Source of the DNA: Chloroflexota bacterium
Lineage (GTDB): Bacteria; Chloroflexota; Anaerolineae; UBA4142
DNA length: 33,119 bases
Direction: 5' to 3'
Assembly: GCA_023381515.1 (NCBI GenBank)
Contig: JAMCQI010000010.1
Span: forward strand, 1 to 33,119
Position 1 is the first letter of the stretch. Each line of letters starts with the position of its first letter. The notes beneath the pieces are model-generated. The model was not told where the DNA came from, did not search any database, and saw nothing but the letters and a program-made list of their open reading frames with translations. A program made the translations under genes and the position numbers. Below, one piece after another: positions 16,106-32,373 of the stretch.

Positions 16106-16562
16106 ACACCCGCGGTCATTGCGAGCCGCCCAGAGGGCGGCGAAGCAACCTCACCGACACCCGCGGTCATTGCGAGCCGCCCAGAAGGCGGCGAAGCAAT
16201 CTCACCGACACACGCGGTCATTGCGAGCCGCTCAGAGGCCGGCGAAGCAATCTCACCGACACCCGCGGTCATTGCGAGCCGCCCAGAGGGCGGCGTGGCA
16301 ATCTCACCGACACACGCGGTCATTGCGAGCCGCCCAGAGGGCGGCGCGGCCATCTCACCGACACACGCGGTCATTGCGAGCACGCCCAGAGGGCGGCGTG
16401 GCAATCTCACCGACACCCGCGGTCATGGCGAGCCGCCCAAAGGGCGGCGAAGCAATCTCACCGACACACGCGGTCATTGCGAGCCGCCCAGAGGGCGGCG
16501 AAGCAATCTCACCGCCACCCGCGGTCATTGCGAGCCGCCCAGAGGGCGGCGAAGCAAACTCC
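16106..16562 (+). repeat. Nine tandem copies of a 51-bp palindromic repeat
   Basis: Immediately after the dehydrogenase stop there are nine head-to-tail units of about 51 bp. Each unit has a hairpin core GCCGCCC-AGA-GGGCGGC inside an outer arm pair ATTGC / GCAAT, joined by a short linker ending CTCACCGACA. Copies differ at a few positions: the linker alternates CCCGCGG / CACGCGG, the right arm reads GAAGC, GTGGC or GCGGC, and one copy has a 1-nt insertion. The 51-bp period is divisible by three, so several frames stay open and encode 17-aa repeats. These are not genes. The core resembles dispersed REP-like elements of many bacteria, but a tandem array is uncommon. It could also act as a terminator for the upstream operon. 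Confidence 0.9.
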
Positions 16563-16760
16563 CTCTTCACGGGGGCAACCTCCCCCTGAGCCGTCGGCGC
16601 AATACCACCCGCCGCCAGGCAGCGAACCGCACCCCCGCACGCGCTACCCCCTCCGCCTGTCCCCTCATCCCTCATCCCCCCGCCTTCATCACCCGCCCCG
16701 CGCTTTTCAGCGGGGTTCATCTCTCATCCTTCCGACCTTGGCTCATTGGCAAATTGGAAA
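16563..16760. repeat. Non-coding spacer with a dispersed hairpin repeat
   Basis: No gene is visible. At 16695-16720 there is a hairpin element (CCCCGC...GCGGGG followed by TTCAT). A close copy occurs at about 32508-32533, near the transposase remnant on the other side of the defence-like operon; both copies are preceded by CTTCATC. The rest is low-complexity C-rich DNA (repeated CCCTCATC) and short AT-rich direct repeats (ATTGGCAAATTGGAAATTGGC) just before the promoter. Confidence 0.6.
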
Positions 16761-16789
16761 TTGGCTCATATGGGTTTCTGTGCTATACT
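16761..16789 (+). promoter_or_regulatory. Probable sigma-70 extended -10 promoter of the defence-like operon
   Basis: The -35 box TTGGCT (16761-16766; 4 of 6 consensus bases), a 17-nt spacer, an extended -10 TGC and the -10 box TATACT (16784-16789; 5 of 6) form a good housekeeping promoter. The surrounding 30 bases are AT-rich in an otherwise GC-rich region. Transcription would begin near 16796, giving a leader of about 390 nt before the PLD/SNF2 gene. No competing promoter of this quality is seen nearer to the gene. Confidence 0.65.
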
Positions 16790-16795
16790 CTCCCC

Positions 16796-17107
16796 ACCAG
16801 GGGCAACGGCACTGGACTTCCGAATTCTTTGTCGCTCGAAGAGCGCAGAATTCGCAAGTCTCGCAGACCCTGCCCCGTCTTGTCTTTGCACCGCGTGCGA
16901 CTGCATTAGCAAACCAAACCCCCTGCCCCCTTCCCTACCAGGAAGGGGAAAGGACCTTGCTGGAGATAGCGGAATCTCCGGTCCCGCTGATCCTTCGACT
17001 TCGCTCAGGACGCGGGATCCGCGACGAGGAAGGGGGCCCCGTACCGGCACGTCGGCAGTTGCCCGGGTGGCGAAGATCGCATGTAATCGGATCGTCGGCG
17101 ATCCTCG
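16796..17107 (+). promoter_or_regulatory. Long folded 5' leader upstream of the defence-like operon
   Basis: The untranslated stretch contains successive inverted repeats. The strongest is 16800-16876: GGGGCA pairs with TGCCCC, CTG with CAG, a 14-nt arm 16815-16828 with 16847-16860 (13 of 14 pairs), and an inner CGCTC-GAA-GAGCG. A second hairpin is CCCCTTCC-CTACCA-GGAAGGGG (16927-16948). Weaker arms follow (GGAGA / TCTCC, TCCCGC / GCGGGA, GATCGC / GCGATC). Some parts, such as CCTTCGACTTCGCTCAGGA, resemble widely dispersed bacterial repeats, so the leader may be built of repeat elements. I do not recognise a known riboswitch. It leads directly into an intrinsic terminator. Confidence 0.5.
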
Positions 17108-17156
17108 GCACTTGCCATTTGGCGCGCTCGCGCCAGGGGCGGGTGCTTTTTTGTTT
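17108..17156 (+). terminator. Intrinsic terminator just before the PLD/SNF2 gene (possible attenuator)
   Basis: GCACTTGCC (17108-17116) pairs with GGCGGGTGC (17138-17146), nine pairs including two G-U, and encloses a 7-bp hairpin TGGCGCG-CT-CGCGCCA. Six T residues follow directly (17147-17152), then GTTT. This is a textbook rho-independent terminator on the + strand. Its T-run ends 30 nt before the ATG at 17186, too close for another promoter to fit easily in between. It either ends stray transcription or acts as an attenuator of the operon downstream. Confidence 0.75.
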
Positions 17157-17185
17157 GCGACATCGCAGTTTGGAGGGTACAGCCC

Positions 17186-20100
17186 ATGCCCCGCATCTTC
17201 GATAACATCGAGCAGCACTTGCGCCCCGCGCTGCAAGAGACCCTCAAGGTCTCCGAGCGCGCTGATTTCTGCGTTGGATACTTTAACCTCCGCGGCTGGA
17301 AGGAACTGGACTCGTACATTGAAGACTGGTCCGGGGGCGAGGGGCACCGCTGCCGGCTGCTCGTCGGCATGCAGCGGCTGCCTCAGGAAGAAATGCGAGC
17401 GGCGTTTGGCCTCGCCCCCGACGAGGGCATCGACAACCAGACCGCTCTGCGCCTCAAGAAAAAGGTCGCCGAAGAATTCTGTGAGCAGCTTACAATCGGC
17501 GCACCCACCAACGCAGACGAAGCGGGACTGCGCCGTCTCGCCGCGCAGATCCGAGCCAAGCGCGTCGTCGTCAAGCTGTTCCTGCGCCATCCGCTCCATG
17601 CCAAGCTCTACCTTCTCTTCCGCCCCGACCCAATCAACCCGATCGTCGGTTATCTGGGGAGCAGCAACCTGACTCTGGCAGGTCTTTCCCACCAAGGTGA
17701 GCTCAACGTCGATGTTCTCGATTGCGATGCCGCGGCCAAACTTTCCCGGTGGTTTGACGACCGCTGGGCGGACCGTCGGTGCGTGGATATTTCCGAGGAG
17801 CTCGCGACGATCATCGAGGAGAGTTGGGCGCGTGAGGTTCCAATTCCCCCTTACCACATCTACATCGACATGGCCTACCATCTGTCCCAGGAGGCACGCA
17901 CCGGTCTTGCCGAGTTTAGTATACCCTCTCGGTTCGATCGCGAGCTCTTTGATTTTCAAAAAGCCGCGGTCAAGATCGCTGCGCACCATCTGAACAAGCG
18001 CGATGGAGTGCTCATCGGGGATGTCGTGGGGCTCGGCAAAACGCTGATGGCGAGCGCCGTCGCGGCCATCATGGAGAACGACCAGTTCATGGAGACGCTG
18101 ATCATCTGCCCCAAGAACTTGGTCAAAATGTGGGAAGATTATCGCATGCGCTACGGCCTCCGCGCGACCGTCAGGTCGCTGACCGACGTCCAGAAGGTGC
18201 TCCCCCATCTCCCCCGCCATCGGCTGCTCATCATCGATGAGAGCCACAACCTCCGGAACCGAGACGGCAAGCGCTACAAGGCGATACAGGCGTATATTGA
18301 AAAGAACGAGTGCAAGGTTGTCATGCTCACAGCCACGCCGTACAACAAGACATACCTCGACCTTTCCAACCAACTCCGCCTTTTTGTCCCCGAGACCAAG
18401 GACCTTGGCATCCGCCCCGAGCGCCTCCTTGCAAAGATGACCGAGACAGAGTTCATGCGCGTGCACCAATGCGGCCCGCGCACCCTTGCCGCCTTCGAGT
18501 TCAGCGATTCCCCAGACGATTGGCGCGAGCTCATGCGCCTCTACCTGGTGCGCCGCACACGCAGCTTCATTCTGGACAACTATGGGCAGACGGATGAGAA
18601 CGGGCGCAAGTATCTCACGTTCTCCGACGGGCGGCTCTCTTACTTCCCCGTCCGCATACCCAAAAGGGTCCCCTTCGACATCGACGATGCCAATCCCGAG
18701 GACCAGTACGCGCGGATGTACGCGGAGGATGTCATAGATACTATAAATGATCTGCGACTGCCCCGCTACGGATTGGGGAACTACGCAGACTCGCCCAGCA
18801 TCGATCCCACCGCGGTCGAAGCCGCCGTCTTGGACGACCTGTGCCGAGCGGGCAAGCGACTTATGGGTTTTTGCCGCACGAATCTGTTCAAACGTCTTGA
18901 AAGCAGCGGGTCAGCCTTCCTGCAATCCCTCGAGCGCCATATCCTACGCAACTATATCTATCTGCATGCAATTGAAAACGACGTGCCAATTCCGCTTGGG
19001 GCCCAGGGAGCCGAGTTACTCGACGCCCGCGTAAACGACGGCGACGAGAACGACCGTGGTCAGGACGATCTCTTTGATGAGGATGAGGGTGAGGACCGGG
19101 CAGCGCCGGCCATCAACAACCTCAGGAAAGAACGCGATTTCCAGGCACGCGCATCAGAGATCTATGCTGAATACTCTACCTCGTACCAGAAGCGCTTCAA
19201 GTGGTTGCGCCCTGGCCTCTTCGACGCGGACCTCGCCAAGGACCTCCGTCACGACGCGAGAGACCTTTTACAGGTCCTCAAGAAATGCGGCCCTTGGGAT
19301 CCCGCGGCCGATACGAAGCTAAGCGCGCTGCACAACCTCCTGACCAGAAAACACCCGACCGAAAAGGTGCTCGTCTTTAGTCAGTTCGCGGACACGGTCA
19401 ATTACCTTGAGGCGCACCTCAAGGCAATGGGCGTGGTGAACCTTGAAGGTGCAACCGGCGACACGGCCGACCCGACCGAGTTGGCGTGGCGGTTTAGCCC
19501 GGTGAGCAACGACAAGCGTGACCGGATCACCCCGGCTGGGGAACTCCGTGTTTTGGTCTCCACGGACGTTCTCAGCGAGGGCCAAAACCTCCAGGACTGC
19601 AATATTGTCGTCAACTATGACCTGCCCTGGGCCATCATCCGCCTGATTCAGCGCGTCGGCCGCGTCGACCGTATCGGGCAGACCGCCGAGAATATCCTCT
19701 GCTATTCCTTCCTGCCCGCTGAGGGGGTTGAGCGCATTATCCGCCTGCGCACGCGCGTGCGCCAACGTCTTCAAGAGAATGCCGAAGTCGTCGGAACCGA
19801 CGAGATGTTCTTTGAAGATGATCGGAACGATCGAGCCGTCCTCGATCTCTACAATGAAAAAGCCGGTATCCTCGACGGTGACGCAGACACCGAAGTTGAC
19901 CTGGCGTCGTACGCCTACCAGATTTGGAAAAACGCCACAGACGCAGATCCCTCTCTCTCGGACATTATTGCAAAGCTGCCTCTCATCGCGTACTCTGCGC
20001 GATCCCACACGCCCACCGCCCAAGCGCCCGAGGGCGTCCTCCTATACCTCCGAACCGCAGAAGGCAACGACGCGCTCGCGTGGATGAACAAGGACGGCAA

Positions 20101-20554
20101 TAGCGTCACGGAATCACAATATGCCATCTTAAGAGCAGCAGAATGCCAGCCCGATACACCCGCCGTTCCGAGGGATCCAGTCCACCACGAACTTGTCAAA
20201 CAGGGTGTTGAGATGATTGTGCGTGACGAAAAGACCGTCGGAGGCCAGTTGGGGCGACCATCCGGTGCCCGCTTCCGGACCTACGAGCGTCTCAAGCGCT
20301 ATTCCGACGAGGTCAAGGGCACCTTGTTCGCGACGCAGGAATTGAATAAAGCAATTGAGGAGATCTATCGCTACCCTCTGAGGCCCACGGCAGTGGAAAC
20401 ACTGAACAGGCAACTGCGGAGCGGGGCGTCCGACGAACGCTTGGCAGAGATCGTGGTTGGCCTGCGCGATGAGGACCGCCTGTGCATCGTGGAGGAGGAG
20501 GCTCAGACCCGGGAACCGCAGATCATCTGCTCGCTGGGGCTGCGTCAGGTATAG
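17186..20554 (+). CDS. PLD-nuclease / SNF2-type helicase fusion
   Basis: A 1122-aa protein, probably the DNA-translocating nuclease of a restriction or defence system. Residues 1-200 are a phospholipase-D-like nuclease domain with one HKD half-site: His138-x-Lys140 in HPLHAKLYLLF, then GSSNLT (159-163) and Glu172. Single HKD nucleases work as dimers. Residues 250-900 form an SF2/SNF2 helicase: a Q-like FDFQKAAVKIA, Walker A GDVVGLGKT (Lys285), DESH box (351-354), ATPYNKTYLDLSN (motif III region), then a C-terminal lobe with VLVFSQFADTVNYLE, VLVSTDVLSEGQNLQ and QRVGRVDRIGQ. The last 200 residues are unassigned and may contact the partner or DNA. The ATG follows TGGAGGGT. PLD and SNF2 functions occur as separate proteins (DrmC, DrmD) in DISARM; here they are fused. 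Confidence 0.93.
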   Translation: MPRIFDNIEQHLRPALQETLKVSERADFCVGYFNLRGWKELDSYIEDWSGGEGHRCRLLVGMQRLPQEEMRAAFGLAPDEGIDNQTALRLKKKVAEEFCEQLTIGAPTNADEAGLRRLAAQIRAKRVVVKLFLRHPLHAKLYLLFRPDPINPIVGYLGSSNLTLAGLSHQGELNVDVLDCDAAAKLSRWFDDRWADRRCVDISEELATIIEESWAREVPIPPYHIYIDMAYHLSQEARTGLAEFSIPSRFDRELFDFQKAAVKIAAHHLNKRDGVLIGDVVGLGKTLMASAVAAIMENDQFMETLIICPKNLVKMWEDYRMRYGLRATVRSLTDVQKVLPHLPRHRLLIIDESHNLRNRDGKRYKAIQAYIEKNECKVVMLTATPYNKTYLDLSNQLRLFVPETKDLGIRPERLLAKMTETEFMRVHQCGPRTLAAFEFSDSPDDWRELMRLYLVRRTRSFILDNYGQTDENGRKYLTFSDGRLSYFPVRIPKRVPFDIDDANPEDQYARMYAEDVIDTINDLRLPRYGLGNYADSPSIDPTAVEAAVLDDLCRAGKRLMGFCRTNLFKRLESSGSAFLQSLERHILRNYIYLHAIENDVPIPLGAQGAELLDARVNDGDENDRGQDDLFDEDEGEDRAAPAINNLRKERDFQARASEIYAEYSTSYQKRFKWLRPGLFDADLAKDLRHDARDLLQVLKKCGPWDPAADTKLSALHNLLTRKHPTEKVLVFSQFADTVNYLEAHLKAMGVVNLEGATGDTADPTELAWRFSPVSNDKRDRITPAGELRVLVSTDVLSEGQNLQDCNIVVNYDLPWAIIRLIQRVGRVDRIGQTAENILCYSFLPAEGVERIIRLRTRVRQRLQENAEVVGTDEMFFEDDRNDRAVLDLYNEKAGILDGDADTEVDLASYAYQIWKNATDADPSLSDIIAKLPLIAYSARSHTPTAQAPEGVLLYLRTAEGNDALAWMNKDGNSVTESQYAILRAAECQPDTPAVPRDPVHHELVKQGVEMIVRDEKTVGGQLGRPSGARFRTYERLKRYSDEVKGTLFATQELNKAIEEIYRYPLRPTAVETLNRQLRSGASDERLAEIVVGLRDEDRLCIVEEEAQTREPQIICSLGLRQV

Positions 20555-20604
20555 AGTGCGCTCTTGGTTCTGTCAAGATACCAGATTAAGCCGGAGTTGA
20601 AAGC

Positions 20605-23600
20605 ATGCTTCTGAACGCTGCGCGCGTCCGCAATTACCTTAAAGACAATGATTTCAGAGGCCTGTTCATCGAGGAGCTCGGTTGGGACCACTGCAAAACA
20701 GATTTACAGATCACTGTGGACGGCCGAATCTTCCCTCTGTTTGGTCTAGCCGAAAAGCGCGGGATGGTCGCCTTCACATGCGATCTGCCTTCGGACGGCT
20801 GTTTCCCCGACTATGCTACGCGCCGCAAGATTGAGACGCAGGTCGCCAAATCCGTGCGCGAGCATCTGATCATCTACGTTGATCCCACACACGGAACCCA
20901 AGTCTGGCAGTGGGTCAAGCGCGAGCCCGGGAAACCCATCGCCTGTCGCGAACACATTCACTACCGCGCTCAATCCGGCGACCTTCTGATCCAAAAGCTC
21001 CAGACGATTTCCTTCAGCCTTGACGAAGAGGGGCAGATTACGCTCCCTGACGTTCTCGGCAAGGTGGCAAAAGGCTTTGACGTCGAGCACGTAACCAAGC
21101 ACTTTTATGATCGCTTCAAGATAGAGCACGCAGCGTTCACGAAATTCGTGCGAGGCATTCCCGACGGGCACATGCAGCGCTGGTATGTGTCGGTCATGCT
21201 TAACCGCTTGATGTTCATCTACTTTGTCCAGAAAAAGGGCTTTCTCGACGGCGACCCCAACTACCTCCGCACCAAGCTCGCTGCAACCAAAGCTCATGGC
21301 AAGGATCGGTACTATCGCGAGTTCCTATGTCCGCTCTTCTTTGAAGGATTTGCCAGGCAAGAGACCGATCGATCGCCCGAGGCCAAAGCGCTCCTGGGCA
21401 AGGTGCCCTACCTAAACGGCGGCCTCTTCCTCCGTCATCAAGTAGAAGAGCAGTACGGAAACGCCATAGAAATCCCCGATGCAGCCTTTGAAAAGATCTA
21501 TCGATTCTTCGAAGAGTATCAATGGCACCTGGACGAGCGCCCCCTGCGCACGGGCAACGAGATCAACCCTGATGTTTTGGGCTACATCTTCGAGAAGTAC
21601 ATCAACGCGGTTCAGCCCGGCGAGCAAAAGGCGAAAGGCGCATACTACACTCAGGAGGATATCACCGGATACATCAGCCAGAACACCATCATCCCGTTCC
21701 TCTTCGACGCCGCGCGCAACAAGTGCAAAACTGCTTTTGAGGGTGCGCAGTCCGTTTGGCGGCTTCTGCAGTCCGACCCCGATCGCTACATCTACGCCCC
21801 GGTTAAGCATGGGGCCGCACTGCCCTTGCCCCCCGCGATTGCCGTCGGGCTCGACGACGTATCGAAACGAACCGAATGGAACAAATCTGCGCCGTCGGAT
21901 TTCGCGCTCCCCACAGAGATTTGGCGAGAGATGGTTGCGCGGCGCAAGCGCTATGAAGAGGTTCGGGCGAAGCTCGCGAACGGAGAAATAAGGGACGTCA
22001 ACGACTTAATCACCTACAACCTCGACATCCGGCAATTCGCCTTGGACGTGATCGAAAACTCCGAGGGGCCAGAGTTGCTCCGCGCCTTCTGGCATGCCAT
22101 TGAAAAGGTGACCGTGCTCGACCCGACGGTGGGGTCAGGGGCCTTCCTTTTCGCCGCGCTCAACGTCCTCGAGCCTCTGTACAGCGCTTGCCTCGACCGA
22201 ATGCGCGGGTTCCTGGATGACCTCGAGCGCTCTGGTGAAAAACACCGCCCCGAAAAGTATGCAGACCTTCGCGCCATTCTCGAACGAATCGCAGACCGCC
22301 ACAAGGAGCGGTATTTTGTGCTCAAGTCGATCATACTCAACAATCTCTACGGCGTTGACATCATGGCCGAGGCGACCGAGATCTGTAAGCTGCGCCTTTT
22401 CCTGAAGCTAGTCGCGCAGGTGGACACCGCAGACAGAATCGAGCCGCTTCCCGATATTGACTTTAACATCCGGTCGGGCAACTCCCTTGTCGGGTTCGCC
22501 ACATATGACGAAGTGAAAAAGGCCGTGCTCGGCGACAGGCAGGCGAAGATGGACCTGGCCGACGACATGCAGAGCATTGACGAGAGCGCTGAGAATGCCG
22601 ACCATGCCTTCTCCAGGTTTCGGGAAATGCAGATGCTGCGCGGCATGCAGCCGGAAGAGTTCGCGGCTGCCAAGCACGAGTTAAGGGAGAGACTGGTCAA
22701 GTTGGAAGCCCAGCTCAACCGATACCTGGCCACGCAATACGGCAGGGACCCCAATAAAGAGGCCGCGTACGCTTCGTGGCTCGAATCTCACATGCCGTTC
22801 CACTGGTTCGTTGAGTTCTATGGTATCCTAAAGCGAGGCGGCTTCGATGTGATCATCGGGAACCCGCCCTACGTAGAATACAACTCCGTGAAGAAGAACT
22901 ATGCGGTGAAAGACCCTGATCTGCTAGCCGGCGGGAACCTCCATTCCATGATCACCGCAAGGTGCCTGCGGCTAAGCAAACAGACCGCATACATCTCCAT
23001 GATTGTACCGATTGCTCTCGGGAGCACAGACCGGATGGCTGAGATTCGGCACCCCTTGTCGAACGAGGCAACCATCTGGCTGAGCAACTACGCAATTCGC
23101 CCGGCGAAACTATTCGTTGGAGCGGAACAAAGGCTCTCAATCTTCATAGCCTCTCGCAAATTCAACGGGAGGATTTTCACCACAAAATACATGAAGTGGA
23201 ATTCTGGGGAACGTGACTGCCTATTCCAGCGGCTTGATTATTCAGAGTGGGCACGAATCGCAACACTGAGAGACGTATGGCCCAAGCTCGGGTCTGCCGT
23301 CGCGCAGAGTGTCCTTGAAAAAGTCACCCGGCAGGACGTTGCGCTGGCACAATGTTTGGGCGCTAGCCAATCAAGCACTTTGTACCACAAGAACACTGGC
23401 ATCGGCTACTTCGTGGTCGTTACGAGGACACCCCCAGAATGCTTTATAAACGGGAAGAGGACGCCCAGCTCACGGGAGACACCGCTGGTGGTCAAGACGC
23501 CAGCGCTTGCTTCAGTCGTGCACTGCATCCTCAGTAGCTCTCTTTTCTTCCTAGTATACCAACAGCTGAGCAATTGCCGTGACCTCAACCCCTCGGATAT

Positions 23601-23898
23601 TCGGACCTTCCGCGCTCCCAGCACCCTCCTAAACGAAGCGGCTCTCCTCCCCCTGTCCCTCCGGATGCAAAAGAGCCTGATTGAAAACTCCTGGCTTCAA
23701 GTGCGGCACCAGCGGCAAACAGGGGAGGTGAGAATCCAGTCATTTACGCCATCCCTTTCAAAGCCAATAACCGATGAGGTAGATCGGCTCCTGGCCAAGC
23801 ACTACGGCCTCAACAGCGAGGAGTTGGATTTCGTTATCAACTACGATATCAAGTACCGTGTGGGGACTGACTCGGCAGAGGACGAAGACTCGGACTGA
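20605..23898 (+). CDS. Large N6-adenine DNA methyltransferase (Eco57I/PglX-type)
   Basis: A 1097-aa class I methyltransferase of the type IIG/PglX group. Motif I is DPTVGSGAFL (Asp506) and motif IV is NPPY (753-756), the signature of N6-adenine enzymes. Between them LNNLYGVDIMAEATEICKLR is the conserved motif II/III region. The upstream helical section KGAYYTQEDITGYISQNTI is typical of this group. Residues 1-150 (FIEELGWDHC, EHLIIYVD, QVWQWVKRE) resemble the N-terminal part of Eco57I-like restriction-methylases and might be a nuclease or its remnant; I cannot assign catalytic residues with confidence. The region after about 780 should hold target recognition. It lies 50 nt after the PLD/SNF2 gene and would mark host DNA against it. 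The ATG follows GGAG. Confidence 0.93.
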   Translation: MLLNAARVRNYLKDNDFRGLFIEELGWDHCKTDLQITVDGRIFPLFGLAEKRGMVAFTCDLPSDGCFPDYATRRKIETQVAKSVREHLIIYVDPTHGTQVWQWVKREPGKPIACREHIHYRAQSGDLLIQKLQTISFSLDEEGQITLPDVLGKVAKGFDVEHVTKHFYDRFKIEHAAFTKFVRGIPDGHMQRWYVSVMLNRLMFIYFVQKKGFLDGDPNYLRTKLAATKAHGKDRYYREFLCPLFFEGFARQETDRSPEAKALLGKVPYLNGGLFLRHQVEEQYGNAIEIPDAAFEKIYRFFEEYQWHLDERPLRTGNEINPDVLGYIFEKYINAVQPGEQKAKGAYYTQEDITGYISQNTIIPFLFDAARNKCKTAFEGAQSVWRLLQSDPDRYIYAPVKHGAALPLPPAIAVGLDDVSKRTEWNKSAPSDFALPTEIWREMVARRKRYEEVRAKLANGEIRDVNDLITYNLDIRQFALDVIENSEGPELLRAFWHAIEKVTVLDPTVGSGAFLFAALNVLEPLYSACLDRMRGFLDDLERSGEKHRPEKYADLRAILERIADRHKERYFVLKSIILNNLYGVDIMAEATEICKLRLFLKLVAQVDTADRIEPLPDIDFNIRSGNSLVGFATYDEVKKAVLGDRQAKMDLADDMQSIDESAENADHAFSRFREMQMLRGMQPEEFAAAKHELRERLVKLEAQLNRYLATQYGRDPNKEAAYASWLESHMPFHWFVEFYGILKRGGFDVIIGNPPYVEYNSVKKNYAVKDPDLLAGGNLHSMITARCLRLSKQTAYISMIVPIALGSTDRMAEIRHPLSNEATIWLSNYAIRPAKLFVGAEQRLSIFIASRKFNGRIFTTKYMKWNSGERDCLFQRLDYSEWARIATLRDVWPKLGSAVAQSVLEKVTRQDVALAQCLGASQSSTLYHKNTGIGYFVVVTRTPPECFINGKRTPSSRETPLVVKTPALASVVHCILSSSLFFLVYQQLSNCRDLNPSDIRTFRAPSTLLNEAALLPLSLRMQKSLIENSWLQVRHQRQTGEVRIQSFTPSLSKPITDEVDRLLAKHYGLNSEELDFVINYDIKYRVGTDSAEDEDSD

Positions 23899-23957
23899 TA
23901 CGGTTGGCAACGCCCGGCCCCAGCCTCCCCACAGCCACGTCCCGCGGACAACACCTG

Positions 23958-26453
23958 ATGACCCCAGATGCCCACCCTGAGTACGTCACCGAAACAGAAT
24001 ATCTCGATCGCACGATCAAGGCAATTGACAACCGGATCGCCAAGCTCACGAAAAGCCATGGCTCGGCTGCCGACGAGGACACGGAGGAATGCCTGCTCAC
24101 GATCTTTAGCACAGACGTGAAAAGACTCCGCGAGGTCCGCCCCTCGCCTTACTTTGCCAGAATTGACTTTTGCGAGGCCGGCCGCGAAGAACTCGAAAAG
24201 TACTACATCGGCAAGGTCGGTGTTCCCGGCCCCGGCACGTTCGGGGTCCTGGTGGTAGATTGGCGAGCGCCCATTTGCACCATGTTCTTTGGCAAGATGA
24301 CGGATAACGCATCCTTCAGGGGTCCCGGAAGCGTGCTGACGGGCGACATCCTCTTGCGCCGCCGGTATGAGATCAAAAACTCTTCTCTTGAGAGGATCAT
24401 CGACGAATACGACCATCGGCCGCAAACAACCCCGGAAGAGAAGGCGGCCTTCCGCGAGGACCAATACCTGCAGGAAGCGCTCTCTCGCAAGCGTGCGGCG
24501 GAGCTTGACGAGATCACAGCTACAATTCAGTCGGAGCAAGATACGCTGATTCGCGCCCCGGCCGATGAGGTTCTGCTCATCCAGGGAGTTGCCGGGAGCG
24601 GCAAGACATCCGTAGCCCTGCAGCGGCTTGCATACTTGCTCTACCCCGGCCTCAAAACCGGCATGCGGCCTGATCGAATCGCCGTTTTCGCGCCGAACCA
24701 TCTCTTCCTTTCCTATATAGGAAAGGTTCTCCCAAATCTGAGTGTTGACGGCATTCGCCAAACCACCTTTGAGGATTGGGCCCTCCGCCAGATGGGCCTT
24801 GCCTCCTACAAAGTTGACAACGACTACCTCGAGGAGCTCTACGACCCGCTCACGCTCCCTTCAGCCCGGGCAAACCTCGTGATTCGCAATAGCGTGAAAG
24901 GCTCGCTGCGCATGGCAATCGTGCTGGAGCGCTATGTGGAGCAGAGGCGGGCCGCCTTCAATCCCCCCGACCAGGGACTGGTGTATTCTGACGTAGGTCC
25001 ACTGAGCGTGCGGATCGAGATCGGTCGCCAGGCAATGCTCGAAATCCACGCCCAGACGAGCAGTTCACCCCTGAACGTGCATCGCCTCCGCGTCGTCAAC
25101 CGAATCCACGAGCTATTAGAGCAGCGATACAAAGACGCTGTAAAGGCATTCAACCCCGAGGAGCCCGATCCGAAGCTGGTGGAGCAAATCGAGCGCACAA
25201 GATCGCAGATGGAGGGCATGCAAGCGCTGGCTGAAGAGTTGTCCGCCATGTGGCCTCGCCGCGTCGCGTACAAAGAGCCCCCTGATTTGGCGCAGATGCG
25301 CGACAATCTGGCCAGAGGTGTGCTCGGGCTCAAACAGGCGATCAAGAGGCTGGAGCAGGAGCAGACCACCAGCACCGCGGACCGGCGCCTCCTTCGGACA
25401 CGCGCCCTCAATTCGCAAGAGATGAAAGAAACGATGGACCAGCTCTTGCGCCAAATCAAGAAAGACATATCGGGGATCTGGCCTGCCTTGCCCGGAGAGC
25501 AGGATTATTACCGTCTCCTCTCCACTCCGGAGCTCTTGCGTGGCTCCGGCGACGATCTTCTCACTGAGGAAGAGATCACTGCACTGGCATCCTCCCAGCG
25601 ACCTCCCAAAGAACACATCCGGGTCGAAGATATCCCGCCTCTCTACCATTTTCATTCTCTGCTCTTGGGTCACACCGGGCAGGAGCGCTTCCATCACATG
25701 GTGATCGACGAGGCGCAGGATCTATCTCCGCTTCAATTTCGGATTCTGCATGACTTTGCCCAGTCGGCCACCGTCTTGGGCGACCTCGCGCAAGGGGTCC
25801 AAGGTTCGCGGGCGATCCAGTCGTGGGATGACGTCAAACAGATCTTTTCGGACCGGCCGGTAGAGTACGCCGAGATTCCATGCAGCTATCGCTCCACCTT
25901 TGAGATAACGACTGTTGCCAATGATGTCATGAATACAAACCACCTCGCACCATACCTGCCCGCCCAGCCTTTTCATCGGCACGGCCCCCCGCCCGAGTTG
26001 GTACAGGAATCGGACACGGGCTCGATGTTCGCGGCCATTGCACAGACAATTCACGAGGTAGCCAAGGAAGACTTCAAGTCCATCGCCGTCATCGGAAAAA
26101 CCCTTCGGCACTGCAGGAATATCGCGGCCGACCTCCGCAAACAGAAAATTCCAAACGTCAAGCTCGTTGACTCGACTGGTTCGGATTACCAAACGGGCAT
26201 CGTCGTGATTCCGGCCTACTTGGCGAAAGGCATAGAGTTCGACGTTGCCCTCGTGGTGGGTGTTGACGCCTACACCTACACCTCAAGCCCGGAGGACCTC
26301 CATCTGTTGTACGTAGCGATGACGCGGCCCCTGCACAGGCTCTCCCTGTTCTACGTGGGTCCGCTGACACCCCTGCTCGCGCCCCTTGAACAACGTGCCC
26401 CTGAAGAGGGTCAGCAAGGGCAACACATGATCGAAAGCTCGGAGCACCGTTGA
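23958..26453 (+). CDS. HelD-like SF1 helicase (UvrD/Rep superfamily)
   Basis: An 831-aa protein with the layout of bacterial HelD, an ATPase that works on RNA polymerase. The N-terminal helical region (TEYLDRTIKAIDNRIAKL) and the segment PYFARIDF ... YYIGKVGV ... VDWRAPICTMFF are diagnostic for HelD. Walker A is QGVAGSGKTSVALQRLAYL (Lys216), Walker B is VIDEAQDLSPLQF, and late helicase motifs include IPCSYRSTFEI and LLYVAMTRPLHRLSLF. A TTG at 23904 is in frame 6 nt after the methyltransferase stop; I prefer the ATG at 23958 because the extra residues look non-native, but neither has a strong ribosome site. A HelD relative inside a restriction-like operon is unusual: it may process transcription complexes, or have been recruited as a DNA helicase. 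Confidence 0.88.
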   Translation: MTPDAHPEYVTETEYLDRTIKAIDNRIAKLTKSHGSAADEDTEECLLTIFSTDVKRLREVRPSPYFARIDFCEAGREELEKYYIGKVGVPGPGTFGVLVVDWRAPICTMFFGKMTDNASFRGPGSVLTGDILLRRRYEIKNSSLERIIDEYDHRPQTTPEEKAAFREDQYLQEALSRKRAAELDEITATIQSEQDTLIRAPADEVLLIQGVAGSGKTSVALQRLAYLLYPGLKTGMRPDRIAVFAPNHLFLSYIGKVLPNLSVDGIRQTTFEDWALRQMGLASYKVDNDYLEELYDPLTLPSARANLVIRNSVKGSLRMAIVLERYVEQRRAAFNPPDQGLVYSDVGPLSVRIEIGRQAMLEIHAQTSSSPLNVHRLRVVNRIHELLEQRYKDAVKAFNPEEPDPKLVEQIERTRSQMEGMQALAEELSAMWPRRVAYKEPPDLAQMRDNLARGVLGLKQAIKRLEQEQTTSTADRRLLRTRALNSQEMKETMDQLLRQIKKDISGIWPALPGEQDYYRLLSTPELLRGSGDDLLTEEEITALASSQRPPKEHIRVEDIPPLYHFHSLLLGHTGQERFHHMVIDEAQDLSPLQFRILHDFAQSATVLGDLAQGVQGSRAIQSWDDVKQIFSDRPVEYAEIPCSYRSTFEITTVANDVMNTNHLAPYLPAQPFHRHGPPPELVQESDTGSMFAAIAQTIHEVAKEDFKSIAVIGKTLRHCRNIAADLRKQKIPNVKLVDSTGSDYQTGIVVIPAYLAKGIEFDVALVVGVDAYTYTSSPEDLHLLYVAMTRPLHRLSLFYVGPLTPLLAPLEQRAPEEGQQGQHMIESSEHR

Positions 26454-26461
26454 GAAACGCC

Positions 26462-27133
26462 ATGCCGACAACTTGCATCGATGCCCACCATCCCTGCTTC
26501 CCTCATTCTCTTTTACACTTTCTTGGCCCGCGCGCCCCTCAATCCATAAGCGCGATCGGCAACCCGCACCTGCTGAAATCAAAATCCTTGGCCCTCTTCA
26601 GCTCCGTCCGCTGCCCGGGGAACCTGATCTTGCACACCTACGATCTGGCCCAGGCCCTTCGCGACAGTGGGGTAGCCGTTATTGCGGGCTTCCATTCCCC
26701 TATGGAGCAGGAGTGCCTCCGGCTCCTGCTGCGAGGCAAGCAGCCTGTGATCCTCTGTCCCGCGCGCGCTATTGACGGCATGAGGGTGCCGTCCGACCTG
26801 AGAGTGCCGATCGAAGAGGGTCGCCTCCTAGTCCTTTCGCCGTTTTCAGGCAAGCACAAGCGGTTGTCCAGCGTGCTCGCGCCCGAGCGCAATCGGTTCG
26901 TCGCGGCGCTTGCAGATAAAGTCCTCGCCATCCACGCCGAGCCGGGCGGCAAGGTCGAGCAATTATGCCGCGAGGTTACCGGGTGGGGCAAACCGCTGTA
27001 CACGCTCGCCGACGATGCCAACGCAAACTTGGTCGCGCTCGGGGCGAGGGCGATCAGCGTAGGGGATGCGCCACGGTTGCTCAGCCGGGGACCGGATGTT
27101 GCGGACCACCAAGCAGAAAGCTACCAACCATAA
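26462..27133 (+). CDS. DprA/Smf-like (SLOG superfamily) Rossmann-fold protein
   Basis: A 223-aa protein whose residues 30-185 follow the DprA pattern: ISAIGNPHLLKS, then SLALFSSVRCPGN in place of the AIVGSR strand, ALRDSGVAVIAGFHSPMEQECLR in place of VSGLAxGID, QPVILCPARAID, LLVLSPF, and PERNRFVAALAD, the conserved RN-R segment. HAEPGGKVEQLC matches the next strand. True DprA loads RecA on single-stranded DNA during natural transformation; here the protein lacks the usual extra domains and sits between two helicase genes. It may bind DNA ends, single strands or a nucleotide signal, as other SLOG proteins in defence loci are thought to do. A TTG at 26450 overlapping the helD-like stop is an alternative start. 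Confidence 0.75.
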   Translation: MPTTCIDAHHPCFPHSLLHFLGPRAPQSISAIGNPHLLKSKSLALFSSVRCPGNLILHTYDLAQALRDSGVAVIAGFHSPMEQECLRLLLRGKQPVILCPARAIDGMRVPSDLRVPIEEGRLLVLSPFSGKHKRLSSVLAPERNRFVAALADKVLAIHAEPGGKVEQLCREVTGWGKPLYTLADDANANLVALGARAISVGDAPRLLSRGPDVADHQAESYQP

Positions 27134-27146
27134 GCTGGAGACTCGA

Positions 27147-30100
27147 ATGACCATCCACATCTCTGCTCGCCTCGCCTGGCATGATAGCGGCTGGAACGGC
27201 CGAATATGCCACAATCCCCGCGCCAACACCTACTGCGTCGGCCAGTACTCGTTTCCCGCGGACCACATCGCCAAGCACCGCGACCTCGAATGGGAATGCA
27301 CAGAAGGAACGCAAGGTGAGCGCATCTGCCGGTTGAACGGTATTCCACCGTGTATCATGAGCGTGAACGCCTTCGGTGCCGACGAGCTTGTCGCCTCCAA
27401 TGATCCCCCCGATTGGTTCAACGACAACACCGACACAAAACGTTGGCCTCTTCCCCCCGCGACCGTCGCGACCTGGCCCTATGAAGAGATGTTCCGAGAT
27501 GAGGTGGTCAATCCCGAGGGCAGCAAGACGAAATATGACGCGGTGAAACGTCGGGAATATATGCGCGCGTTTTTCTCTGCCATTACCCCGGACCGCAGCC
27601 TGGTATTCTATTACACTAACTACAGCAACCCATTCTCGGAGAATGACCAACTCCGCTATGTGCTGGTCGGCGCAAGCCGTGTCAAAGGTGTTGGGGACGA
27701 GCTCACATGGGTAAATCAATCTCCGAAAATCGCCACACGCTATGGCCCAATGGTCTGGTTCCGCAACATAACGTCCCATTACCCGGACCAGGGGTTCCGA
27801 ATTCCCTATCATTTGTATTGGAACTCGCCCGAGATACTGGAGCGCATACTTGTCGTCCCGGATAATCCTCGCCATTTCAAGTATGCAGCCCGCCATATAA
27901 CCGACGACGGGGCGCTTGGTCTCATCGAACGGCTCCGCGAAGTGGCCGCGGTGCTGCAAGAAATCGGTGACGAGTCGGAGAACTGGCAAGCCCGCCAGGA
28001 TTGGCTCGCGTCGGTTATGGCCGAGGTCTGGCATAACCGTGGCCTTTACCCGGGCCTGACGCGGGTATGGGACTATTTGAAATTCGGCGAAGCGATTCCC
28101 TACACCAAGGCTAAAATTGCAGAAAAGGGGGAACTGGCCGTCAAGGACCAGCTGTTTGCCCTAGTGGAGGGTCGCACTGAACGTGTCCAGGGGCTCGAAA
28201 TTGCCGCCGCGCGACTGGGCAAGGTGCGGAAAAAGTGGAAAGAGCTGGAAACGGATCAACACTCCCTCCTGCGCGACACTCTTCCCCGCTTTGATCTTCA
28301 GGCTGACCAGATCGCCAGGATCATGGATGAACCGGAGAAAGCGAGCATCTACGCTGCACCCGCGCAAATCAGCGCCGATCCGTACATCCTTTCCGAACAG
28401 TACGTAGGCGGCAATCCGGACGACCAAGTCTCGTTCAGCCAGATCGATCATGGCCTGTTTCCCTCCCCGGACCTCGGAAACACCGCCGCCCTCGAGCCCG
28501 ATGGATGGGAACGCCTTCGTGCCCTCTGCGTCCAACAACTTCAGGAAACTGAGCAGCACACATTCCAGCCCGCAGACCTGGTACTCGACAATGTGAACCG
28601 GCGGCTTTCGTTCCTCCCGGAATGGAAGGCCGTCCTGTACAAGGCCAGACAATTCGAGACTGAAAAAGACAATCTCGGGGATGCTCTCACCTATCGTTAC
28701 GAGGGCGACACCCTCTACCTCTACCTAAAATCCGTCTTCGATGACGAGCGCTTTGTTGAAACGACCCTCCGTCAACTCGCTGCACGCCCCGATATACCCC
28801 TCCGCTCCCCGGTAGTCGAAGGGGACTGGAAGACCTACCTGACCGACCCCAACAGTCCGTTCTACAAGCAGCACCCCAACGAGTACGCGGAAGCGATCTC
28901 CCAGCAGGTCGTCGTTTGCCAAAAGATCTTCCGCCGGCCCCTCAGCGTCCTCTCTGGTGCTGCAGGAACTGGCAAAACAACGGTCGCGAGCGCGATCATC
29001 AAGGCCATCGAAAAAGGCCATGGGACGGGTACTTCCTTTCTGCTGCTCGCGCCGACCGGCAAAGCGGCTGATCGGCTCCGCGACCGAACCGGAAAGCCCG
29101 CCTCGACGATACACTCGTTCTTGGCAAGCCAGGGTTGGCTCAACGATAATTTTGCCTTCAGGCCCAAAGGTGGCAAGCGGGCCGACACCATCACAACCTA
29201 CATCGTCGACGAGTCCTCAATGCTGGACTTGCCGCTCCTCGCGACTCTCTTTCGCGCCATCAACTGGAATTCCGTTCAGCGCCTCATCTTCATTGGCGAC
29301 CCCAACCAGCTCCCGCCCATTGGCACCGGTAAGGTCTTTGCCGACCTGATTGATTGGCTGAAAGCCGAAATCCCCTCCAATATTGGCGAACTGACCACCA
29401 ATATGCGCAATAAACTCAACGAGTTGCTGGGCCGGGGCACTGGCATCATCGATCTGGCTTCGCTCTTTATCCGCCGCGACCTGGCAAGTCAGAAATCTGC
29501 AGATGACGAAGCAAAGGAAGAGACGCTCTTACAGGAGCTGCAGCAGGAGGGCCTCGTCAGGGGCGATCTCCGTGTGCTGTATTGGAAGACACAGGAAGAG
29601 TTGGAATCCCGGTTGCTCGACACGATCCGGTCAGACATGACCGACTACGTCCGAAAGCATGGGGGAACAGTGGACCCGTCCCGCCCCGACAAGCTCTGGA
29701 AAGCATATTGGAACAACGGAAACAACCCATCTCAGCCGGAGCGCAATCAGGTGATCTCCCCCTACCGAGGCGAGCCGTTTGGTGTCGAACACCTCAACGC
29801 ACTGCTCCAAAGACAAAAGAACAGTTGGTGGCTCGACAACAAGGGGTCCGTTGGAGGAATCACTATCGACGACAAGGTAATTCAGATCATCAACCGCCCG
29901 CAGTCGAACATGATCTGGGCCTACGATACCCGACAGAAAAAGAACATCAAAGTGCAGGCGTATAACGGCGAGATTGGCACCACCAAGATTCACGGGTTCG
30001 ATACGCACAACAACAAGTGGAAATGGCCGACCTTTCACGTCGAGCGCTTGCAGGTTGTGTTCAGCCGCAAGCCCGATCTCTGGGTGAGCTACGGGTCCGA

Positions 30101-31274
30101 GGGCGAAGTGACGGAGAATCTTGAACTGGCCTACGCCATCTCCGTTCACAAAGCCCAGGGAAGCGAGTTTGAATTCCTCTACTTTGTGCTCCCCAAGTAC
30201 AAACGCGGTCTGCTCTCACGCGAATTGTTCTACACTGGCATTACCCGCGCTCAGACTTTTAGCACCCTCCTGATACAAGAGGACATCGCGCCTATCCTCA
30301 GCCTCCGCCGGCCCGAAAACTCCTACCTGGCACGCATTAACTCGTCGCTCTTCCGTTTCAGACCCATCTCTCCCGATTTGCAGCGAATGCACGACTGGTA
30401 CGTTGAGGGGCGAATCCACCGAACCCTGACCAATGAGATGGTACGCTCCAAGAGCGAGGTAATTATCGCCAACCTCCTGTCGGATCGCGAGATTCCCTTC
30501 GAGTACGAAGTTCCGCTCTATTCTCCCGTTGACGGCACTTTTTACCTGCCGGACTTTACCATCAACCTGCGTGGCGAGCGATGGTACTGGGAGCACCTTG
30601 GCCTCCTCCACGACGAGCGCTACAAGAACCACTGGCAAGAGAAGAAGGCGTGGTACAAAAAGAACGGCTACTGGGATCACGTGATTACCTCAGAGGAGGG
30701 TCCGGGCTTTGACAGCAAGCTCGTTGAAGCTCTTATCGCCGACAAGCTTGGCGTTACCGGCCCCGGCATCGACAACACTCCGCCTCTTAGCGATGTCGAG
30801 AAGCTTGCGGCTTTGATCGCCCAGGGAGAGAGCGAGACCCTCGAATTCAAGGAAACGCTCGAGGCAAAGAACACCACTGGGGAACGCTTACCGGCTCTGG
30901 TCCAGACGTCGCTCAAGACCCTTGCGGCTTACTTGAACACCAACGGCGGCATCCTTCTCATTGGCGTCGCAGACAACGGTCAAATCAAAGGGTTGGAAAA
31001 GGATTTTCAGTTGTTATCAAGGAGCAAGAATACCGACGGACTCGAACTCAAGATCCGCGATCTCATCAAGGACCACTTTGACCCTGTGCCACTCGGTTTC
31101 ATTGACATCGCCTTCATTTCCGCTGGCGACCAACAGGTGTGCCGCGTTCAAGTCCGTCCGAGTGATGAGGTTACACACTACGACAAGGCAGTATACGTCC
31201 GCGATGGCAACCGCACGCTTCAGCTCGAAGGACGCCAACTCACAGAATGGCTGCTCAGGCGCCTGCGTAAGTAA
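27147..31274 (+). CDS. Multi-domain fusion: unknown N-terminus, RecD-like helicase, PD-(D/E)xK-like nuclease, AlbA_2 domain
   Basis: A 1375-aa protein with at least four parts. Residues 1-500 (HISARLAWHDSGWNG, NPRANTYCVGQY) are a Cys- and Trp-containing region I cannot assign. Residues 580-1080 are a RecD-like SF1B helicase: GAAGTGKTT (Lys610), DESSML (Asp688-Glu689), IFIGDPNQLPPIG, and the late motif YAISVHKAQGSEF. Residues 1095-1180 look like a PD-(D/E)xK nuclease: Glu1104 in RSKSEV, Asp1136 in LPDFTI and Glu1149 in YWEHLG, with Leu in place of the usual Lys. Residues 1225-1370 form an AlbA_2 (Schlafen-type) domain: ESETLEFKET, AAYLNTNGGILLIGVAD. The ATG at 27147 follows CTGGAG; an earlier in-frame start at 27066 overlaps the previous gene. 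It probably unwinds and cuts foreign nucleic acid. Confidence 0.88.
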   Translation: MTIHISARLAWHDSGWNGRICHNPRANTYCVGQYSFPADHIAKHRDLEWECTEGTQGERICRLNGIPPCIMSVNAFGADELVASNDPPDWFNDNTDTKRWPLPPATVATWPYEEMFRDEVVNPEGSKTKYDAVKRREYMRAFFSAITPDRSLVFYYTNYSNPFSENDQLRYVLVGASRVKGVGDELTWVNQSPKIATRYGPMVWFRNITSHYPDQGFRIPYHLYWNSPEILERILVVPDNPRHFKYAARHITDDGALGLIERLREVAAVLQEIGDESENWQARQDWLASVMAEVWHNRGLYPGLTRVWDYLKFGEAIPYTKAKIAEKGELAVKDQLFALVEGRTERVQGLEIAAARLGKVRKKWKELETDQHSLLRDTLPRFDLQADQIARIMDEPEKASIYAAPAQISADPYILSEQYVGGNPDDQVSFSQIDHGLFPSPDLGNTAALEPDGWERLRALCVQQLQETEQHTFQPADLVLDNVNRRLSFLPEWKAVLYKARQFETEKDNLGDALTYRYEGDTLYLYLKSVFDDERFVETTLRQLAARPDIPLRSPVVEGDWKTYLTDPNSPFYKQHPNEYAEAISQQVVVCQKIFRRPLSVLSGAAGTGKTTVASAIIKAIEKGHGTGTSFLLLAPTGKAADRLRDRTGKPASTIHSFLASQGWLNDNFAFRPKGGKRADTITTYIVDESSMLDLPLLATLFRAINWNSVQRLIFIGDPNQLPPIGTGKVFADLIDWLKAEIPSNIGELTTNMRNKLNELLGRGTGIIDLASLFIRRDLASQKSADDEAKEETLLQELQQEGLVRGDLRVLYWKTQEELESRLLDTIRSDMTDYVRKHGGTVDPSRPDKLWKAYWNNGNNPSQPERNQVISPYRGEPFGVEHLNALLQRQKNSWWLDNKGSVGGITIDDKVIQIINRPQSNMIWAYDTRQKKNIKVQAYNGEIGTTKIHGFDTHNNKWKWPTFHVERLQVVFSRKPDLWVSYGSEGEVTENLELAYAISVHKAQGSEFEFLYFVLPKYKRGLLSRELFYTGITRAQTFSTLLIQEDIAPILSLRRPENSYLARINSSLFRFRPISPDLQRMHDWYVEGRIHRTLTNEMVRSKSEVIIANLLSDREIPFEYEVPLYSPVDGTFYLPDFTINLRGERWYWEHLGLLHDERYKNHWQEKKAWYKKNGYWDHVITSEEGPGFDSKLVEALIADKLGVTGPGIDNTPPLSDVEKLAALIAQGESETLEFKETLEAKNTTGERLPALVQTSLKTLAAYLNTNGGILLIGVADNGQIKGLEKDFQLLSRSKNTDGLELKIRDLIKDHFDPVPLGFIDIAFISAGDQQVCRVQVRPSDEVTHYDKAVYVRDGNRTLQLEGRQLTEWLLRRLRK

Positions 31275-31360
31275 CCGGCGTCACCACCGGAACCGAACTC
31301 GCCGCGCGTAGGTGAGGGCTGCTCCGGTGGCCCGTGGGACCGTCCGCAACCCTATGACCG

Positions 31361-31510
31361 GTAGGGGCGGCCCGGAACCGCGCGTCCGCCCGGAACCGCG
31401 CGATCGATCGAAACCGCGCGTCCGCCCTGGGCCGCGCGACCGGTCGAAACCGCGCGTCCCCCCGGAACCGCGCGTCCCCCGGAACCGCGCGGCCGCCCGA
31501 CACCGCGCGC
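31361..31510. repeat. GC-rich short tandem repeat tract
   Basis: A run of imperfect 14-18-nt units around the core GGAACCGCGCG or GAAACCGCGCG separated by TCCGCCC-like linkers, at least eight in a row. It is followed by GTAGGGGCG elements at 31598, 31680 and 31706. Open frames through this tract give Arg/Pro-rich low-complexity peptides and are not credible genes. No gene is visible between 31275 and 32102. Confidence 0.7.
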
Positions 31511-31679
31511 TCGCCCCAACCGCGTCGCCGCTCGCATGGGACACCCTCCCCGACCGCGAACGTGCGACCTCATGTGATCGTTTGCACCCGACAACCCGTA
31601 GGGGCGACCCGGAGCCTGTCCTGAGCCGCGCGAAGGATGGTCGCCCGGATCCGCACGGCGGCACGGACCGCGATGATTC

Positions 31680-31871
31680 GTAGGGGCGGCCCGCAGGGCG
31701 TCTTGTAGGGGCGGCCCTGAGTGGCCGCCCTGAGCCGCGCGAAGGATGGTCGCCCTGGGCCGCGCGAAGGACGGTCGCCCTGAGCCGCGCGAAGGATGGC
31801 CGCCCTGGGCCCGCTGCCGCTTCGGATCCGCGTGCCCTATTTTGTTGGTCAGCTGGAGGCGCACTCGCCCA
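31680..31871. repeat. 192-bp direct repeat, copy A
   Basis: This segment recurs at 32928-33119 with a handful of substitutions. It begins GTAGGGGCGGCCC, contains three units of a CCGCGCGAAGGATGG(C/T)CGCCCTG motif, and then a single-copy part (CCGCTGCCGCTTCGGATCC). The last 99 bases (31773-31871) are identical to the last 99 of the window. Together the copies bracket the transposase remnant. Confidence 0.9.
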
Positions 31872-31898
31872 TGGTAGGCCGACCCCCCATACACGCTC

Positions 31899-31955
31899 GG
31901 CGTCCCTGCAGAGGGACGCCCGGCTGCAATGCCCCGAGAGGCGATTTCAATCGCC
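31899..31955. repeat. Two adjacent hairpins between repeats
   Basis: GGCGTCCCT-GCAG-AGGGACGCC (31899-31920) is a perfect 9-bp stem, followed by GGCGAT-TTCA-ATCGCC (31940-31955). Neither has a T-run. They look like REP-type palindromes belonging to the repeat cluster rather than a terminator. Confidence 0.6.
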
Positions 31956-31970
31956 CCCGCGTTTTCCGCC

Positions 31971-32087
31971 TTCATCCTTCAACCGCCTCGCCTCCGCCTC
32001 CCGCGTCACCGTCGTTCGGGCGACCGGCCGGCCGCCCCCTCGAGGCCGCCTCAAGACAGGGCGCCCACATCGGGGCGCCCCTACAAA
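31971..32087. repeat. 117-bp dispersed repeat, copy A
   Basis: It begins TTCATCCTTCAACCGCC and ends CGCCCCTACAAA. A near-identical copy of the same length lies at 32529-32645, inside the transposase remnant. The 3' part forms a GC hairpin. This copy ends 16 nt before the ATG of the transposase remnant, the usual position of elements mobilised by REP-associated transposases. Confidence 0.85.
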
Positions 32088-32373
32088 AAACACCTACCGT
32101 CCATGCAACACGATCCCGACCCACACCACCGCAAATCCATCCGCCTGCGCGGCAATGATGACGCGCAACCGGGCGCGTATTTGGTCACCATCTGCACGCA
32201 TCATCGGGAATGTCTGTTCGGTGACCAGGTGCTGCGTTCCGTCGTGGAAACGCAATGTCGCCCGTTGCCTTGTCATTTCTCCCATATAGAATCAGACGAA
32301 TGGGTGGTGATGCCAAATCACCTGGACGCGATTGTTGTCATCGCAGACGATGCGAGGCGCGTGGATCCCGCGC

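What the first reader, a model, noticed from the sequence alone, without database searches (positions are those of the whole stretch)
17186..31274. Candidate new anti-phage/restriction operon of five large proteins
PLD-SNF2, PglX-like methyltransferase, HelD-like helicase, DprA/SLOG protein and a RecD-nuclease-AlbA fusion are collinear with gaps of 8-59 nt between them. Parts recall DISARM (PLD, SNF2, methyltransferase) and BREX (PglX), but DrmA, DrmB, PglZ, BrxL and BrxC are absent. The operon combines methylation-based self-marking, two nuclease-helicase proteins and a DNA-end or strand sensor. Flanking repeats and a transposase remnant fit a mobile defence island.
Basis: partly seen in the sequence, partly recalled or inferred. 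Interest (0 to 1): 0.8.

Follow-up and report, generated by a model that had tools for sequence, protein, structure and literature searches.

The report
Restriction operon with a swappable cargo slot
A bacterial gene cluster pairs a DNA-tagging enzyme and a DNA-cutting motor with a small DprA-like protein, and relatives of this trio carry different extra genes in the same place, which suggests a restriction system with a built-in slot for a second line of defence against phages.

Summary
The five collinear ORFs are real, at the stated places and with the stated gaps, but they are not one conserved five-gene system. The core is a PLD-SNF2 helicase-nuclease plus an Eco57I/type-IIG-like adenine methyltransferase, a widespread R-M pair that also occurs without the other genes on plasmids. 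It lies 3' of the methyltransferase in 9 of 10 assembled non-plasmid loci found through the helicase, and in 0 of 5 opened plasmid loci. In 3 of the 9 it overlaps the methyltransferase end; in 6 a variable cargo sits between: DarTG, HNH plus AlbA_2, DUF1828/1829, AbiLi-like ATPase, radical SAM plus DUF4258, Mrr plus sigma-like. The same DprA subfamily also occurs with type I (3 loci) and type III-like (1 locus) R-M genes. In the window the cargo is a HelD-like ATPase, and PDC-S68 (RecD-nuclease with AlbA_2 tail) follows; neither accompanied the core elsewhere. P0004 models as a DprA/ShosA fold. Best reading: an R-M core plus a DprA-like sensor or antitoxin that gates exchangeable effectors; the gating is inference. 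Not DISARM, BREX, BREX-related or ARMADA.

The parts
17186..20554 (+). PLD (single HKD) - SNF2 helicase - Helicase_C protein, 1122 aa; predicted restriction translocase-nuclease
   Evidence: the 119 listed homologues other than itself are 69-79% identical
20605..23898 (+). Eco57I/type IIG-like adenine methyltransferase, 1097 aa, with N-terminal domain lacking a conserved (D/E)xK
23904..26453 (+). HelD-like UvrD-family ATPase (849 aa from TTG 23904; likelier start ATG 23958); cargo seen only at this locus in the sample
26450..27133 (+). DprA-like (SLOG) protein, 227 aa from TTG 26450 (likelier start ATG 26462); recurrent third member of the R-M core
27147..31274 (+). PDC-S68 protein: RecD-like helicase, predicted PD-(D/E)XK-type nuclease region (about residues 1114-1211, counted from 27066), C-terminal AlbA_2 (residues 1255-1387); ORF open from 27066

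Best explanation
The locus is an R-M operon with an accessory tail. (1) The methyltransferase reads a DNA site and marks self DNA with N6-methyladenine. (2) At unmarked sites it hands the DNA to the PLD-SNF2 protein, which translocates on and cuts the DNA with its HKD nuclease, roughly as HsdR does for HsdM/S. The methyltransferase's own N-terminal domain appears nuclease-dead and may dock the helicase. (3) The DprA-like protein is the regular partner of this R-M core. It most likely senses single-stranded or broken DNA, or a nucleotide, made during restriction or when restriction fails, and restrains or licenses the effector encoded next to it, as the DprA-like antitoxins ShosA and PsyrA are reported to do. 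(4) The effector slot is exchangeable: elsewhere it holds DarTG, an HNH protein, AlbA_2/HATPase proteins, DUF1828/1829, an AbiLi-like ATPase or a second PLD. Here it holds a HelD-like ATPase, with the helicase-nuclease PDC-S68 after the DprA gene as a further DNA-degrading effector. Steps 1-2 rest on intact motifs and constant pairing; the partnership in step 3 and the variability in step 4 are shown by gene neighbourhoods; all activities and the gating mechanism are inferred.
Against: 0 of 5 opened plasmid loci have the DprA-like gene, so the R-M pair does not need it. In L175, L176 and L179 no cargo sits between methyltransferase and DprA gene, which weakens a strict antitoxin role. DarTG has its own antitoxin DarG. 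10 of 25 opened DprA-like places show no R-M gene or core remnant; only 3 of these (L227, L231, L235) have their upstream side cut off by a contig end. The DprA-like matches beside type I genes in L225 and L236 contain an in-frame stop. No activity was measured, and no Chloroflexota genome could be used as a search centre, so the likely home lineage is untested. Kinship among genomes was not controlled in the P values.
Confidence: 0.6

Rival explanations
1. A conserved R-M pair with unrelated neighbours in an ordinary defence island. DprA-like, HelD-like and PDC-S68 genes act independently; HelD may only recycle stalled RNA polymerase.
For: The pair without the others on 5 opened plasmids. PDC-S68 relative in L185 with no R-M gene among its neighbours by ORF listing (neighbours not profiled) and beside other R-M systems. 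HelD-like gene absent from all other loci then held.
Against: DprA-like gene in 9 of 10 helicase loci, sometimes overlapping the methyltransferase end, and strong co-occurrence. So it can hold for HelD and PDC-S68 but hardly for the DprA-like gene.
Confidence: 0.3
2. The DprA-like gene is a landing or exchange element: cargo genes enter R-M operons together with a DprA gene or by recombination at it, and it has no role in defence signalling.
For: L166 holds a DprA fragment (89 aa) and a full copy on either side of an AlbA_2 gene. DprA-like genes persist beside helicase remnants in L226 and L241. The same cassette (DarT-DarG-DprA; AlbA_2-DprA; DUF1828/1829-DprA) appears with different R-M types or elsewhere.
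Against: Conserved GFHSPxExECL...QP...RN motif over 23 sequences. Stop-start overlap with the methyltransferase where there is no cargo.
Confidence: 0.2
3. One reading: one dedicated five-protein anti-phage machine.
For: Tight collinear spacing. Chloroflexota relatives could not be examined.
Against: None of the 30 loci tabled has the HelD-like or PDC-S68 gene. The PDC-S68 relatives opened sit with type ISP, type I or other helicase-methyltransferase genes, or without visible R-M genes.
Confidence: 0.1

Closest known systems
Type IIG / Eco57I-like R-M enzymes (PADLOC REase_MTase_IIG, PDLC03628)
   Same: The methyltransferase matches that model over residues 1-1090.
   Different: No conserved (D/E)xK in the N-terminal domain of 30 aligned sequences. 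The nuclease is most likely the separate PLD-SNF2 protein.
BREX-related Type-2 systems (PMC12839542: outline, the Type-2 BR section and passages seen)
   Same: HKD nuclease fused to a SNF2 helicase beside an N6-methyltransferase.
   Different: No DUF499 or DUF3780 match. Helicase scores 134 bits against a cut-off of 1100 for NF042964.
ARMADA (PMC12458937: one section and passages seen)
   Same: RapA/SNF2-type helicase, PglX-like methyltransferase and UvrD-family helicase in one operon.
   Different: No YprA helicase. Here a PLD domain, a DprA-like protein and PDC-S68.
DISARM
   Same: PLD, SNF2 and methyltransferase parts.
   Different: No DrmB among listed matches. DrmD model 134 bits against a cut-off of 610.
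ShosTA / PsyrTA / RqlHI toxin-antitoxins
   Different: No phosphoribosyltransferase or RqlH/PsyrT-type toxin found beside it. Here the protein is tied to R-M operons.
PDC-S68 (PADLOC phage defence candidate)
   Same: 1627 bits over residues 28-1224 of the fifth protein.
   Different: C-terminal AlbA_2 added, seen in 4 of the 120 listed homologues.

Membership tests
DISARM | DrmD helicase at curated score | tested here: not met
   134 bits, cut-off 610
DISARM | DrmA and DrmB genes in the operon | tested here: not met
   no DrmB among listed matches and only a 51-bit helicase-core match to DrmA in the SNF2 protein (for the first two proteins 25 of 41 and 25 of 38 matches are shown)
BREX | PglX at curated score | tested here: not met
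   56 bits, cut-off 500; its nearest solved relatives by sequence and by a low-confidence model are nevertheless BrxX/PglX (TM 0.29)
BREX | PglZ, BrxC and BrxL in the operon | tested here: not met
   none among listed matches of the five proteins
BREX-related Type 2 | DUF499 and DUF3780 genes; anti-phage PLD helicase model NF042964 | tested here: not met
   no such Pfam match among the five proteins; 134 bits against 1100
ARMADA | YprA-like helicase | tested here: not met
   none of the five proteins shows a YprA-type match beyond the 51-bit DrmA helicase-core match; no YprA-specific model was run; the defining feature is from PMC12458937
Type IIG R-M enzyme | full-length match of restriction-methylation protein model | tested here: met
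   991 bits, residues 1-1090
Type IIG R-M enzyme | nuclease active site in the same chain as the methyltransferase | tested here: inconclusive
   REase-like order of elements in the model of residues 1-135 but no conserved (D/E)xK; only motifs and one model examined
PDC-S68 | end-to-end model match | tested here: met
   1627 bits, profile 1-1197 of 1202
ShosTA/PsyrTA type toxin-antitoxin | DprA-fold partner | tested here: met
ShosTA/PsyrTA type toxin-antitoxin | PRTase or PsyrT/RqlH toxin beside it | tested here: not met
   neighbours are HelD-like and PDC-S68
HelD RNA polymerase recycling factor | curated score of NF041464 | tested here: not met
   354 bits, cut-off 419; still the best family, and the HelD entries 6wvk and 6yxu are its best solved relatives
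R-M system | methylation and restriction activity | not testable with these tools
   needs methylome sequencing and plating assays

The most novel reading that the evidence does not exclude
R-M operons of at least three kinds (PLD-SNF2 with type IIG-like methyltransferase, type I, type III-like) share one dedicated DprA-like subfamily that turns restriction events into a signal. It gates an interchangeable effector or toxin, so restriction and abortive infection form one modular two-stage immune system. HelD-like and PDC-S68 are this locus's effectors.
Probability: 0.3. Interest if true: 0.8.

Novelty: new variant of a known kind. Interest (0 to 1): 0.55.

Why it matters
DprA-like proteins are known as competence factors and, in a few systems, as antitoxins. 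A DprA subfamily tied to R-M operons beside changing toxin-like genes would help explain why R-M loci collect such genes, and offers a direct test of whether restriction and cell suicide are wired together. The subfamily profile (alignment A5) can serve as bait for unknown effectors.

Tried and rejected
Five-gene synteny: not found outside the window in the loci examined. DISARM, BREX, BREX-related and ARMADA membership: defining parts absent among listed matches, or scores far below cut-off. The genome-contig scan with the PDC-S68 alignment returned mostly generic RecD helicases because its two patterns were helicase motifs. Its best hit (L001) sits in a 0.7-Mb genome of a phylum where 1 of 286 genomes has a match, so it may be misbinned. 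No Chloroflexota genome could be used as a centre; a search of the phylum of G002 covered 2 genomes, no match. Viral-contig scan with the single helicase sequence: no relative; with alignment A2: 7 loci; with the methyltransferase alignment: 3 loci, all on contigs already in hand; with the DprA alignment: 5 loci, 4 on contigs in hand and L219 not inspected. P0004 against plasmids and helicase against phages: no match. Synechocystis pSYSX carries the helicase-methyltransferase pair; I suspected a measured methylation motif, but the published pSYSX methyltransferase Slr6095 belongs to a type I locus (passages of PMC6560206), that Slr6095 is a different gene from the one here is my reading of names and positions, and the 2018 methylome paper is not held. 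A correction: I aligned a wrong-frame ORF for L174; one search found the right one (2891-3538, minus strand), and alignments A4 and A5 use it. Model of the whole methyltransferase: mean pLDDT 70, used only for the order of elements in its N-terminus and as a weak fold pointer.

Literature: searches gave listings (101 matched mostly unrelated words). Passages were seen in PMC4176335, PMC5512222, PMC9122126, PMC7641849, PMC8099122, PMC6560206, PMC12839542 and PMC12458937; beyond passages, the outline and one section of PMC12839542 and one section of PMC12458937. None of what I saw describes the R-M/DprA link. The library omits most subscription papers and the bioRxiv collection, so this does not show that the link is unpublished.
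Full report
OBSERVATION. The window has five same-strand ORFs at 17186-31274, 8-59 nt apart when starts 23958, 26462 and 27147 are used. The second protein is an end-to-end match to a type IIG restriction-methylation model (991 bits) and only a 56-bit match to PglX. The fifth is the catalogued candidate PDC-S68 (1627 bits) with an added AlbA_2 domain. Upstream genes include a periplasmic binding protein, ABC ATPase, two URO-D proteins, aldo/keto reductase, FGGY kinase and L-arabinose isomerase.

CORE PAIR. The 119 listed homologues of the helicase other than itself are 69-79% identical, and named sources among them include Chloroflexi, Thermodesulfobacteriota, NC10, Bathyarchaeia and Methanosarcinales. 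On plasmids 26 records cover at least 80% of the helicase; I opened 5 of them: Synechocystis pSYSX, Pelobacter pPRO1, Anabaena pANACY.05, a Rhodococcus ruber plasmid and Pseudarthrobacter pACHL02. In all 5 a gene annotated DNA methyltransferase lies 3', in pSYSX after two small genes, one of VapC type. None of the five stretches has a HelD-like, DprA-like or PDC-S68 gene detectable by tblastn. The R-M pair is therefore an independent module.

THIRD MEMBER. A search of 297 genomes of the phylum of G004 (G004 is the genome of L024, titled Desulfobulbaceae) found the helicase in 8 genomes, 9 places. Of the 9 stretches fetched, 4 show DprA-like genes 3' of the methyltransferase (L174 coordinates corrected). 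IMG/VR contigs gave 7 helicase loci; in all 4 whose 3' side is present (L175, L176, L177, L179) the DprA-like gene follows, overlapping the methyltransferase end in L175 and L176 (4 nt) and L179 (41 nt), and after Mrr-N and sigma-like ORFs in L177. A later draw of 395 genomes added L237 with DprA, and L238 and L239 that end too soon. Among loci found through the helicase with a full methyltransferase and at least 1 kb beyond it, 9 of 10 have the DprA-like gene; L168 does not; L169 has only 0.6 kb left and is not counted. L229 and L230, found through the DprA gene itself, also show methyltransferase then DprA but are not counted.

CO-OCCURRENCE. The DprA profile A4 matched 20 of 297 genomes at E 1e-15; I take this to be the same set as, since size and listed handles agree. 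7 of the 8 helicase genomes are among them (expected 0.54; hypergeometric P 1.6e-8). In the 395-genome draw, which contains the same positive genomes and is not independent, 11 and 23 with 8 shared (P 5e-9). Kinship is not controlled.

REVERSE TEST. Of the 28 distinct DprA-like places (30 rows) I opened 25. 12 have R-M genes in the stretch: 7 with this core (L166, L172, L173, L174, L229, L230, L237), 1 with a divergent PLD-SNF2 and methyltransferase in opposite order (L232), 3 with type I genes (L223, L225, L236; in L236 between them, and with an in-frame stop in L225 and L236) and 1 with type III-like genes (L221). 3 have only remnants of the core (L220, L226, L241). 10 have neither (L222, L224, L227, L228, L231, L233, L234, L235, L240, L243); of these L227, L231 and L235 have their upstream side cut off by a contig end. 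L224 has AbiE genes and L240 SIR2/Dsr1-like and AlbA_2 genes by profile; L234 has DarT- and DarG-like ORFs by resemblance only. The 3 unopened places are G324 (two) and G443.

CARGO. Between methyltransferase and DprA gene: HNH protein, DprA fragment and AlbA_2/HATPase (L166); radical SAM and DUF4258 (L172); DUF6978 and DUF1828/1829 (L173); DarT-DarG (L174); Mrr_N and sigma-like (L177); second PLD nuclease (L230); AbiLi-like ATPase (L237); none in L175, L176, L179 and L229. In the window: HelD-like. Recurrent cassettes: DarTG-DprA (L174, L223); DUF1828/1829-DprA (L173, L231); AlbA_2-DprA (L166, L240, and by resemblance L220); DUF1016-DprA (L221, and by resemblance L241).

READING. The window holds a widespread R-M pair, for which I found no dedicated description, with its usual DprA-like partner, an unusual HelD-like insert and PDC-S68 appended. 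The DprA-R-M partnership is the new element. Whether DprA gates the cargo (0.3 for the strong form) or marks a cassette boundary needs experiment.

Noticed in passing
window 16761-17186: Extended -10 promoter-like site (16761-16789), then about 330 nt of strongly folding leader (z -3.1) ending in a terminator-like hairpin (17124-17146, TTTTTTG) 40 nt before the helicase start; promoter and terminator scan counts are near chance level, no Rfam match, no blastn match in other held loci. Possible attenuated leader or small RNA.
   Followed up: partly
window 16025-16612: Nine copies of a 51-nt tandem repeat starting in the 3' end of the upstream ORF (15107-16099).
   Followed up: no
window 31352-33119: 18-nt and 25-nt GC-rich repeats, a 192-nt direct repeat (97%), and a perfect 21-nt inverted repeat at 32374/32458; three ORFs there have no Pfam match.
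   Followed up: partly
window 1-211 and 1142-1352: 211-nt direct repeat, 90% identical, the second copy at the 3' end of a sugar-binding protein gene, possibly tandem paralogues.
   Followed up: no
L166 8896-9165: 89-aa fragment like the N-terminus of the DprA-like protein near a full copy: sign of cassette turnover.
   Followed up: partly
L232 3605-11580: Divergent PLD-SNF2 (28%), a small ORF, methyltransferase and DprA-like set in the opposite gene order.
   Followed up: partly
L171 10653-11195, L225 13548-14120, L238 4146-4742: Zeta-toxin-like genes: after the helicase in L171 and (by resemblance, not profiled) L238, and within a type I R-M locus in L225.
   Followed up: partly
L243 7286-10448 against L174 and L242: Same-looking neighbours (an ORF starting MDG..EWIETLP, a PIN-like ORF) as at the R-M locus of another genome, but only a DprA fragment and no R-M core: possibly an emptied site (by ORF resemblance only).
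   Followed up: no
L001: PDC-S68 relative (51%) filling a 4.6-kb contig of a 0.7-Mb MAG, possibly misbinned.
   Followed up: no
window 27066-31274: The fifth protein itself was not returned by its own protein search, whereas the first two were returned by theirs; reason unknown.
   Followed up: no
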